Below, one piece after another: positions 15,190 to 18,340 of a stretch of DNA of 20,824 bases. The translations under genes and the position numbers were made by a program. The notes under the pieces are model-generated. The model saw only the letters and a list, made by a program, of their open reading frames with translations. It ran no database searches and had not been told where the DNA came from. Origin of the DNA: a virus; IMG/VR virus record IMGVR_UViG_3300003322_000341, positions 1-20,824 of that record, one strand, 5' to 3'. Positions within the stretch are counted from its first letter, which is position 1; each line of letters opens with the position of its first letter.

Positions 15190-15211
15190 CGCGCCTCCTA
15201 ACCCCATCTGA

Positions 15212-15235
15212 AGCCCGCCATGAGCGGGCTTTTTT
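15212..15235 (+). terminator. Rho-independent terminator of the repressor transcript
   Basis: AGCCCGC (15212-15218), loop CATGA, GCGGGCT (15224-15230), then a run of six T including the last stem base. A seven-base GC stem and U tract on the plus strand, 22 bases after the membrane-protein stop. It isolates the repressor unit from the early operon. Confidence 0.9.
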
Positions 15236-15275
15236 GCGGCTGCCGATGTCACCTGAACACGGTACAAACCCTGGA

Positions 15276-15319
15276 AATATTCTTTCGCGCTTGCGCGCGA
15301 ATATTCTCTGACGCATACT
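15276..15319 (+). promoter_or_regulatory. Probable early promoter with repressor operators
   Basis: AATATTCT occurs at 15276-15283 and again at 15300-15307 (the latter within the palindrome GAATATTC at 15299-15306). Together AATATTC and GAATATT form an inverted repeat flanking TTCGCGC-TTGC-GCGCGAA. A possible promoter is TTGCGC (15291-15296), 17 bases, CATACT (15314-15319). It matches consensus only partly (3/6 and 4/6), but the palindrome lies in the spacer, where a bound repressor would block polymerase. The motif matches the arms of the operator at 14339-14370. The first gene starts about 300 bases downstream. Confidence 0.5.
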
Positions 15320-15384
15320 CGCTCCCAAGCCACCGAGACGCCCCAACGGATGGTGGTGAAGCCAAAGCAGGCTGCGCATCGCAC

Positions 15385-15610
15385 GACCTCACAAGGGAAG
15401 GCGGGGCAAGGCAGGTAGGGCTTGGCTCGACGCGGTATCGCAAGGGTGGGCTTGGCAGGCAGCCCAAGGCGTGTCGTGACCGGGAAAGGCAGGACGAGGC
15501 AGGCTAGCCAGGGCATCGCGAGACACCGAATGGAACGGCCCGGCAGTGCAGGCGAGCCCAGGCGTCGCACGCAACGGCAACGCCAGGCGCGGCTAGACAA
15601 GGCAGGCAAG
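15385..15610 (+). other. G-rich repetitive untranslated leader of the early operon
   Basis: The roughly 300 bases between the promoter and the first early gene contain no convincing gene. The plus strand is G/A-rich and T-poor with repeated GGCAAGG and GGCAGG units (GGCAGG at 15410, 15454, 15488, 15498 and 15601), ending in AAGGAG before ATG 15618. Read on the other strand it gives a Pro/Leu/Cys repeat protein, typical of translated non-coding repeats. I have seen comparable GGCAAGG-type leaders ahead of phage early genes. It could be an antitermination or RNA-structure element; the mechanism is unknown. Confidence 0.5.
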
Positions 15611-15617
15611 GAGCAGC

Positions 15618-16244
15618 ATGGAAAAGAAGGCAGTTCAGATCGCGGCACCGAAGCTGCGAACCGTCGAGTTCTTGATCAAGGGCACCGCGCCCTATGTTCA
15701 GGCTCGGTTCTCAGCCAAGGCCATGCAGGCGATGGCGTCCAAGATGGCAGCCGGCAGCTTGGCGAAGAAGGGTGCGAAGCGTGAGGCTCGCGACTTCAAC
15801 GACGACTATCTGCAGGCCCAGCACGTCAGTACTGAGGGTTGGCGCGGTATTCCGGCCGGTGCCTTCCGGCAGGCCATGATTTCCGCCTGCCGGCTGGTTG
15901 GCTTCCGCATGACGCTCGCCAAGCTGTCGGTGTTCGTCGAGGCCGATGGCTTTGACAAGGTCGATGGCGTCCCCCTCATCCGCATCAAGGGTGAGCCGGA
16001 ACGGCTGGACATGGCCGTCCGCAATGCCACGGGAGTGGCTGACATCCGCGTGCGCCCAATGTGGCGCGAGTGGTCCGCAAAGCTCAGGGTTCGCTATGAC
16101 GAAGACCAGTTTTCACTGGATGACATCACAAATCTTGTCATGCGCGTCGGGGTCCAAGTCGGAATTGGCGAAGGCCGGCCTGACTCCCGAGAGTCTGCAG
16201 GACTTGGATGGGGCACCTTTGCACTTGGGGGCAGCGATGAATAA
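15618..16244 (+). CDS. Conserved phage early protein, possible RAMP/Cas7-like fold
   Basis: 208 aa, ATG 15618 with AAGGAG four bases upstream; first gene of the early operon. I recognise the pattern as a widespread phage early-gene family without known function: KGTAPYVQARFS near 21-32, a basic KKGAKREARDF segment, GIPAGAFRQAMISACRLVG at 77-95, VRPMWREW at 145-152, and a Gly-rich end GVQVGIGEGRPDSRESAGLGW at 178-198. Strands alternate with a single helix after GIPAGAF. The IPAGAFRQAM helix and the C-terminal Gly-rich loop resemble the two signature elements of RAMP (Cas7/Csm3-type) RNA-binding proteins; this is my inference and untested. Its place before Sak4/DUF669/nuclease genes suggests nucleic-acid work. 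Confidence 0.6.
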   Translation: MEKKAVQIAAPKLRTVEFLIKGTAPYVQARFSAKAMQAMASKMAAGSLAKKGAKREARDFNDDYLQAQHVSTEGWRGIPAGAFRQAMISACRLVGFRMTLAKLSVFVEADGFDKVDGVPLIRIKGEPERLDMAVRNATGVADIRVRPMWREWSAKLRVRYDEDQFSLDDITNLVMRVGVQVGIGEGRPDSRESAGLGWGTFALGGSDE

Positions 16245-16701
16245 GGCTGCCCAAGACGAGCTGAAGGCGCTTTACGAAAAGTCGCCCACTCGCACGCTAC
16301 GGCCCGAGGCCGTTGTCGAGTACGCGAAGAACGAAGCGACCGAGCTGCATCGCTATTTCACCTGGGATGACTGCGAGGCCGCGCAAGCGTACCGCGTCAT
16401 GCAGGCGCGCTCGCTGATCCGCGTTGCAGTCCACGTCATCGAAGAGACGCAAGAAAGCGTGCGCGCCTTTGTGAGCCTGACGCCCGACCGCAAGACCGGC
16501 GCCGGCTACCGCGCCACGGTGGACGTGATGGACGACGCGCAGCTGATGGCTCAGTTGCTGAAAGACGCCCAGGCCGAGTTGGCTGCGTTCAAGCGCAAGT
16601 ACGCGCGCCTCCGCGCCGCAGGCGAACTGCTCGGCGTCTTTGAAGCGATCGAGAAGGTTGAGCCACGCGCAGCACAGCCCGCTTCGTTGCAGGCGGCTTG
16701 A
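16237..16701 (+). CDS. Conserved phage early protein of unknown function
   Basis: 154 aa, ATG 16237 overlapping the previous gene by 8 bases and preceded by a GGGGG run. Recognisable blocks are LRPEAVVEYAKNEATELHRYF and TWDDCEAAQAYRVMQARSLIRV, then a strand-rich middle (FVSLTPDRKTGAGYRATVDV) and a charged helix (LKDAQAELAAFKRKYARL). I remember such proteins beside the preceding family in other phages, so the two probably work together. No catalytic motif is visible. Confidence 0.7.
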   Translation: MNKAAQDELKALYEKSPTRTLRPEAVVEYAKNEATELHRYFTWDDCEAAQAYRVMQARSLIRVAVHVIEETQESVRAFVSLTPDRKTGAGYRATVDVMDDAQLMAQLLKDAQAELAAFKRKYARLRAAGELLGVFEAIEKVEPRAAQPASLQAA

Positions 16702-17525: not shown

Positions 17526-17942
17526 ATGACTGCCATTCCCATGACCGCCCATCCCGAAGCGGGCAACCCGCTGGAGGACCTCGTCGAGGCCTACATCCAG
17601 GCCAAGAAGGCCGAGGACGCCGCCAAGAAGCACCGCGTCGAGCTCGAGGAGCGCATCCTGGCTCTCGCGCCGGCCCGCGAAGAGGGCAGCGAGACGACCA
17701 CGCTGAACAACGGCTTCAAGCTGACGACCACGGGCAAGCTCTCGTACAAGGTCGACGACATCGAGGCCCTGCGCGAGATCTGCCGCGACTGGGACGGCAA
17801 CCTGGTGCCGCTCAAGACCGCCACGACGCTCGACGAGACCGGCTGCAAGTACCTGCGCAAGGAGCGGCCCGAGCTGTGGAAGCAGGTCGCCCGCGTCATC
17901 ACCGTGGCGCCGGCCAAGACCGCGCTGAAGGTTGGCGTGTGA
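17526..17942 (+). CDS. Conserved phage protein resembling DUF7173-type
   Basis: 138 aa, ATG 17526 with GAAGGA upstream. The N-terminal half is a charged coiled coil (LVEAYIQAKKAEDAAKKHRVEL). It is followed by a strand pair (TTTLNNGFKLTTTGKLSYKVD), a helix and KYLRKERPELWKQVARVITVAP. Proteins of this shape, a helix then an FKLT strand and a PELWKQV-like helix, are frequent just before Sak4/DUF669 genes in phages. The family name is from memory and only moderately certain. It may assist recombination or ssDNA handling. Confidence 0.6.
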   Translation: MTAIPMTAHPEAGNPLEDLVEAYIQAKKAEDAAKKHRVELEERILALAPAREEGSETTTLNNGFKLTTTGKLSYKVDDIEALREICRDWDGNLVPLKTATTLDETGCKYLRKERPELWKQVARVITVAPAKTALKVGV

Positions 17943-18340
17943 AGCACGGCCACACCGGGCAAGGCGGCTACCAGTCGCCGACGTACGTCAGCTGGCAGCA
18001 CATGCGCGCCCGGTGTGATCGACCGTCGCACCAGAAATTCAAGCAGTACGGCGCGCGCGGCATTGCCGTCTGCGATCGCTGGCAGACCTTCGCCAACTTC
18101 CTGGCCGACGTGGGCGAACGCCCTGACGGCACGACTCTGGACCGCATCGACAACGCCAAAGGTTACGAGCCGGGCAATTGCCGATGGGCGACGGCAGAGC
18201 AGCAGAACCGCAATCGCCGCTTCTGCCACCGCGTCACGTTTCGCGGCCAGGAGATGTTGCTCGCGGAGGCCGCTGAACGCGCTGGCCTCAAGTACTCAAC
18301 CGCCTACAGGCGCTTTCGCCTGACGGGCTCAATCGAATAG
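17939..18340 (+). CDS. HNH-like/AP2-linked phage DNA-binding protein
   Basis: 133 aa from GTG 17939, overlapping the upstream stop (GTGA). The core is the very common phage motif series: YVSWQHMRARCDRPS, YGARGIAVCDRWQTFANFL, ERPDGTTLDRIDNAKGYEPG, NCRWATAEQQNRNRR. The DRIDN..GY.P.NCRW segment is the HNH-type signature. The C-terminus (EMLLAEAAERAGLKYSTAYRRF) is a NUMOD-like helix-turn-helix for DNA targeting. Such genes move between phage operons as homing nucleases. It lies neatly between recombination genes and does not interrupt any. Confidence 0.82.
   Translation: MKHGHTGQGGYQSPTYVSWQHMRARCDRPSHQKFKQYGARGIAVCDRWQTFANFLADVGERPDGTTLDRIDNAKGYEPGNCRWATAEQQNRNRRFCHRVTFRGQEMLLAEAAERAGLKYSTAYRRFRLTGSIE

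What the first reader, a model, noticed from the sequence alone, without database searches (positions are those of the whole stretch)
15618..16244. First early protein may be a RAMP/Cas7-like RNA-binding fold
The helix motif GIPAGAFRQAM after a strand and the C-terminal Gly-rich loop ending GLGWGTF resemble the two hallmark elements of Cas7/Csm3-like RAMP proteins. Together with the following conserved protein and a Cas4-like nuclease in the same operon, this may be an undescribed nucleic-acid-handling or anti-defence system of phages.
Basis: inference. Interest (0 to 1): 0.6.

Follow-up and report, generated by a model that had tools for sequence, protein, structure and literature searches.

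The report
Phage RNA-guided VIPR system with array

Summary
The 208-aa protein (15618-16244) has a Cas7/Csm3-like RAMP fold. AlphaFold2 gives pLDDT 86; the best solved matches are Csm3-type CRISPR subunits, Z 11. By sequence it is a relative of the solved SUSP1 Vipr protein, profile E 5e-6. It is the effector of a VIPR system, described in a 2026 preprint (PMC13142463). Same-strand arrays flank the gene in 82 of 86 loci, against 1 of 105 control stretches. The following 154-aa gene is a conserved partner. The Cas4-like nuclease is not linked: 0 of 41 loci. Guide dinucleotides of relatives fit codon positions 1-2, as the published 'skip one base' code predicts. A conserved GCAGGY punctuation between guides is not in the preprint's main text. 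No natural target was found, and the window's own array is degenerate (19 of 43 units exact GGY). New member of a known kind; type not determined.

The parts
15369..15372 (+). first AGGC boundary (within AAAGCAGGC)
15373..15412 (+). guide block 1: 8 NN-GGY-like units (TG AT AC CT AA AA GG AA)
15413..15416 (+). boundary AGGT
15417..15456 (+). guide block 2: 8 units (AG TT TC GC AT AA TG TT)
15457..15460 (+). boundary AGGC
15461..15500 (+). guide block 3: 8 units (AG AA GT GT CG AA AG GA)
15501..15504 (+). boundary AGGC
15505..15549 (+). guide block 4: 9 units (TA AG AT GA AC AT AC CC AG)
15550..15553 (+). boundary AGGC
15554..15603 (+). guide block 5: 10 units (GA CA GT AC AC AA CA GC TA AA)
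15604..15607 (+). last boundary AGGC, followed by AAGGAGCAGC and the ATG of vipr
15618..16244 (+). vipr: 208-aa RAMP (Cas7/Csm3-like) protein, PHROG 4652
16237..16701 (+). vap candidate: 154-aa partner protein, PHROG 15946, overlaps the end of vipr by 8 bases

Best explanation
A VIPR (Viral Interference Programmable Repeat) system of a temperate podovirus. The 208-aa Vipr, a minimal single-RRM RAMP, is inferred to assemble along an RNA transcribed from the array just upstream (15369-15607). In that RNA each five-base unit holds two variable guide bases (NN) and a roughly constant GGY. Vipr copies would hold the GGY triplets and present the NN pairs, so the complex would read DNA as NN-skip-NN-skip, mostly codon positions 1 and 2 of a target gene with the wobble base skipped. 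The target gene, most likely in a competing phage or prophage, would be silenced by binding. The 154-aa Vap (weakly winged-helix-like) would help DNA binding. Shown here: fold, homology, array, array-gene linkage, partner conservation, codon register of the relatives' guides. Taken from the preprint's work on other members: RNP formation, 1-nt skip recognition, repression. Not shown: expression, or any target of this phage.
For: Homology to SUSP1 Vipr: phmmer E 0.0025, profile E 5.2e-6 against 177,635 PDB sequences, hhalign probability 94.5 over 53 columns. Fold: Foldseek best E 1.9e-5; VIA-align Z 11.3, rmsd 3.5, 150 aligned (Csm, 9g9f_D). Array: strongest period-5 G signal of the window; parse score 85.8 against a maximum of 18.4 in 2000 shuffles and 19.1 in the best unrelated stretch. 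Linkage: 82 of 86 loci against 1 of 105 control stretches. The same parser picks out two arrays beside SUSP1 vipr/vap1. Partner gene at 60 of 68 loci. NN usage fits codon positions 1-2 best (999 of 1000 bootstraps by KL), and N2-to-next-N1 mutual information is at noise (0.0019); a both-strand mixture of codon positions 1-2 fits better still.
Against: Only 19 of 43 window units have an exact GGY. No natural target was found in any search. The window's own 43 NN pairs do not discriminate the codon register. No sigma-70-like promoter was seen upstream. No structured 3' tail like SUSP1's was tested for directly, and Rfam found nothing. The Vap is not detectably related to SUSP1 Vap1.
Confidence: 0.87

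Rival explanations
1. A VIPR locus whose array is decaying: vipr is intact, but the guides no longer load because most GGY triplets are altered.
For: Exact GGY in 19 of 43 units; the window has the lowest share (0.41) among 41 representative loci, the others lying at 0.51-0.98.
Against: No unit has all three constant bases changed (20 with one change, 4 with two, 19 with none) and the AGGY boundaries are intact. One search left out other loci's arrays below 0.5; outside that table L028 has a long array at 0.34 and L073 one at 0.49. In one guide shared by L033 and L053, 16 of 16 NN bases are kept while 8 of 24 constant bases differ. vipr and vap reading frames are intact.
Confidence: 0.2
2. The system regulates the phage's own or host genes (for example lysogeny) rather than attacking competitors.
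For: Array and gene lie between a repressor gene and the early operon. No competitor target was found.
Against: No window guide appeared among the listed best matches (2 or fewer mismatches) to the window or the fetched loci under the 1-nt skip rule (only the 12 best per rule were listed). Guides vary between near-identical relatives, which fits changing targets better.
Confidence: 0.15
3. A CRISPR Class 1 fragment picked up by the phage.
For: Csm3-like fold.
Against: No PADLOC, NCBIfam or Pfam Cas model matches the protein. The repeats are 5-base NN-GGY units, not repeat-spacer. The closest sequence relative with a structure is Vipr.
Confidence: 0.02
4. The period-5 repeat is a composition artefact or simple-sequence tract.
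For: High G+C region, G-rich strand.
Against: Shuffles keeping dinucleotides never come near. It is found beside the gene in 82 of 86 loci but in 1 of 105 control stretches. NN pairs carry natural adjacency and a codon register.
Confidence: 0.01

Closest known systems
VIPR systems, type II (Escherichia phage SUSP1; preprint PMC13142463; PDB 36pp)
   Same: Minimal phage-encoded RAMP of about 200 aa, a small partner gene, flanking tandem NN/GGY repeats on the gene's strand.
   Different: Vap not detectably homologous to Vap1. SUSP1 guides are runs of 15-16 units in separate ~100-nt RNAs with a structured tail (paper); here blocks of 8-10 units follow one another with only AGGY between them.
VIPR types with staggered, overlapping vrRNA arrays (same preprint, its fig. 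S18, not read)
   Same: Named in the main text as another array layout; may be what is seen here.
CRISPR Class 1 RAMP proteins Csm3/Cas7
   Same: Fold, Z about 11.
   Different: About 11% identity, one RRM, no cas genes, no repeat-spacer array, gapped rather than contiguous reading inferred.
TIGR-Tas (abstract start seen in the search listing only)
   Same: Phage-borne tandem guide array with one protein.
   Different: Different protein and different array type (recalled, not tested).

Membership tests
VIPR | Vipr protein: RAMP homologue with single RRM core and G-loop | tested here: met
   invariant G195, G197, G199
VIPR | Sequence relation to a characterised Vipr | tested here: met
VIPR | RAMP thumb domain | tested here: inconclusive
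   strands 119-149 and a low-confidence helical insertion 33-66 could form it; not compared in isolation
VIPR | Tandem GGY/NN repeats in flanking non-coding sequence | tested here: met
   82 of 86 loci; degenerate in the window (19 of 43 exact GGY)
VIPR | 9-16 repeats plus an invariable 3' tail per vrRNA (described for the SUSP1 and P. fulva clades) | tested here: inconclusive
   blocks of 8-10 units with AGGY boundaries; no tail model tested; Rfam none
VIPR | vap accessory gene | tested here: met
   partner at 60 of 68 loci; not detectably related to Vap1; other Vap families could not be compared
VIPR | Encoded by phage or prophage | tested here: met
   virus record; terminase 62% identical to Burkholderia phage BcepC6B
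VIPR | 1-nt skip recognition of DNA | tested here: inconclusive
   statistics of relatives' guides agree; no target found
VIPR | RNP formation and transcriptional repression | not testable with these tools
   needs experiments
CRISPR-Cas Class 1 | CRISPR repeat-spacer array and several cas genes | tested here: not met
   no Cas model for the proteins at 15618-16701; repeats are 5-base units; Cas4-like gene not linked

The most novel reading that the evidence does not exclude
A VIPR layout in which many short guides (8-12 units) are packed head to tail in the operon's own spacers, without a separate tail per guide, and a conserved GCAGGY signal marks where one guide ends and the next begins, perhaps as the processing or phasing site. 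The reading code tolerates large drift of the GGY scaffold, as in this window.
Probability: 0.35. Interest if true: 0.7.

Novelty: new member of a known kind. Interest (0 to 1): 0.55.

Why it matters
VIPR is proposed as the ancestor of CRISPR RAMP systems, and only two clades (SUSP1 and P. fulva) are characterised in depth in the preprint's main text. This locus and its relatives give a broad family (Burkholderiales-like, rhizobial, mycobacterial, Gordonia and uncultured hosts or contigs) with compact arrays, a distinct partner protein, and an independent, target-free argument that guides read codon positions 1-2 and skip the wobble base. The GCAGGY boundary gives a direct test of how guides are delimited.

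Tried and rejected
Target searches, all negative or at chance. Guides against the fetched loci with skips of 0-3: no excess over shuffled guides, 276 guides. Window blocks 4 and 5 exact in viral contigs: 0 and 0. A guide shared by several arrays: 1 hit, between genes of a contig whose ORFs look like an RNA phage (by eye; sequence), taken as chance. Block 5 with up to 2 mismatches in 300 genomes: 2 hits against 4 with the reversed control. An L070 guide in 195 genomes: 0. L067 and L013 guides: 0 and 0. An L016 guide: 1 hit whose flanking units do not match. Blocks 2-5 were in the local search; block 1 was not tested separately, and blocks 1-3 were not scanned in any collection.

NN conserved more than constants: 54 pairs with all NN equal, 47 of them with identical constants too, one with 8 of 24 different; the reverse selection gave 66 of 618 NN differences against 29 of 927 constant ones. 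Selection effects make this anecdotal. The window's 43 NN pairs do not tell codon register 1-2 from 2-3 (log-likelihood -2.91 and -2.87).

Winged-helix reading of the Vap is weak (best Z 5.9, none of 441 chains at 8 or more). Foldseek/VIA did not list 36pp (library ends 2026-04-08). No promoter-like site; no Rfam match in 9 sources. In one search the window row includes spurious parses elsewhere in the window and was not used; one search replaces it. Four of 86 loci lack a GGY array (L058, L059, L061, L083); by eye L058 has NN-AGY units, L055 NN-GGA and L086 NN-GGT. 41 of 86 loci also exceed the threshold on the opposite strand, probably because the complement of GGC partly fits the matrix; the window scores 18.2 there against 88.2.

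Full report
Observation. In 41 aligned homologues from viral contigs (the window plus 40 of the 63 loci found) the key residues of both motifs are invariant.

Protein. AlphaFold2 on that alignment gives mean pLDDT 85.8 and pTM 0.80, with elements in the order strand 13-22, helical insertion, helix 80-94, strand 105-108, strands 119-149, strand 153-161, helix 167-181, Gly-rich loop, strand 201-203. Foldseek finds 51 solved chains at E 0.001 or better; the 50 listed are CRISPR Csm, Cmr, type VII or III-D subunits. VIA-align gives Z 11.3 (rmsd 3.5, 150 aligned, 11% identity) to Csm; the 50 listed entries are CRISPR effector entries apart from two titled only 'bacterial protein' or 'bacterial protein complex'. 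By sequence the best PDB match is SUSP1 Vipr, 36pp: E 0.0025 with one sequence, 5.2e-6 with the profile. Pfam has no match; PHROG 4652, function unknown, matches at 6e-13.

Known system. The main text of PMC13142463 was read whole (the reference list only in passing); its supplement was not available. It describes VIPR: a phage RAMP, a vap gene, and vrRNAs of YNNGG repeats that read DNA with a one-base skip and repress genes, mostly of competing mobile elements. Two further literature searches found no other paper on VIPR.

Array. The strongest period-5 G signal of the whole window lies at starts 15451-15501. A parser for NN-GGY units with 4-base slips scores 85.8 on 15240-15617 (+). 2000 dinucleotide shuffles reach at most 18.4 (mean 1.8), and of 1024 windows on both strands the best not touching this region scores 19.1. 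The array is AGGC, 8 units, AGGT, 8, AGGC, 8, AGGC, 9, AGGC, 10, AGGC, then AAGGAGCAGC and the vipr ATG. Of 43 units 19 have exact GGY, 20 deviate at one constant base and 4 at two.

Relatives. Of 86 loci (63 viral contigs, 3 phage records plus SUSP1 as control, 18 loci from the bacterial genome collection, and the window; near-duplicates included), 82 have a same-strand array within 0.6 kb upstream or 1.6 kb downstream of vipr; 1 of 105 control stretches more than 2.5 kb away does. In 41 representative loci, blocks between AGGC/AGGT boundaries hold 8-12 units in 214 of 278 cases; positions 3-5 are G 0.89, G 0.87, C 0.74 or T 0.15, while positions 1-2 vary. Near-identical relatives differ in block number.

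Punctuation. The triplet before an AGGY boundary ends in GC in 95% of 446 cases, against 57% of 4914 other units. In 19 loci with degenerate arrays it is 94% of 209 against 42% of 2714. In L086, whose units are otherwise GGT-like, it is 6 of 6 against 0 of 46. GCAGGY is therefore a boundary signal distinct from the ordinary unit. The 4-base step itself is selected by the parser, so its exact AGGY spelling is partly conditioned, and the pooled figures include spurious parses in some loci (for certain in the window's row); the preceding GC is not conditioned in the same way.

Code. For 359 distinct guides of at least 60% GGY (end units dropped, 2799 units) the NN usage fits codon positions 1-2 best: KL 0.064 against 0.10-0.23 for five other registers; 999 of 1000 bootstraps by KL, 765 of 1000 by the correlation measure. 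The last base of one pair and the first of the next share no information (0.0019, the size expected from sampling, by my own estimate), so units are not neighbours in the source DNA. A 62:38 mixture of forward and reverse-complement codon positions 1-2 fits better than forward alone, and mixtures of all three registers fit worse. This agrees with the published skip-one, wobble rule without using any target. The window's own guides are too few to show it.

Partner and neighbours. The 154-aa gene overlaps vipr and has a homologue at 60 of 68 loci by profile. Of the 8 without, one is SUSP1, six are contigs that end within 0.9 kb (L002, L004, L014, L015, L022, L064), and L005 truly lacks it. Its model (pLDDT 86) resembles winged-helix DNA-binding domains weakly (Z up to 5.9). 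The Sak4, DUF669 and Cas4-like genes downstream in the window are absent from all 41 loci with at least 4.5 kb of downstream sequence.

Targets. None found (see Tried and rejected). The host is unknown; the terminase points to a BcepC6B-like phage of Burkholderiales (62% identity).

Verdict. A VIPR system: fold and kinship well supported, array and linkage strongly supported, mechanism carried over from the published members, targets open. The family is known since 2026; the punctuated layout may or may not be in the preprint's supplement.

Noticed in passing
L055 5660-6000; L058 5612-5900; L086 1697-2000: Arrays with other constant triplets (NN-GGA, NN-AGY, NN-GGT); by eye the boundaries keep GCAGG.
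   Followed up: partly
L044 5653-6772; L047 805-1989; L035 5648-6672: Very long punctuated arrays of about 1.0-1.2 kb with about 20 or more guides between vipr and vap.
   Followed up: no
L033, L048, L052, L053 arrays: The guide TA-GA-CG-TA-GT-AT-AA recurs in several distinct loci with differing constant bases (6 or 7 of 7 units shared), suggesting a recurrent target.
   Followed up: partly
L066, L067 (Gordonia phage Pipp, Mycobacterium phage Quico) and 28 further Gordonia and Mycobacterium phage records: VIPR-like proteins annotated as hypothetical in cultured actinobacteriophages; clean arrays seen in the two fetched (L066, L067), which would suit experiments.
   Followed up: partly
window 17939-18340: HNH endonuclease gene (PHROG 3377) inside the early operon.
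   Followed up: no
window 15211-15236: Stem AAGCCCGC/GCGGGCTT running into a T tract: a likely terminator between the repressor gene and the array (by eye; not listed by the scan).
   Followed up: no
L023 5767-6028: A second array 4.7 kb away from vipr.
   Followed up: no
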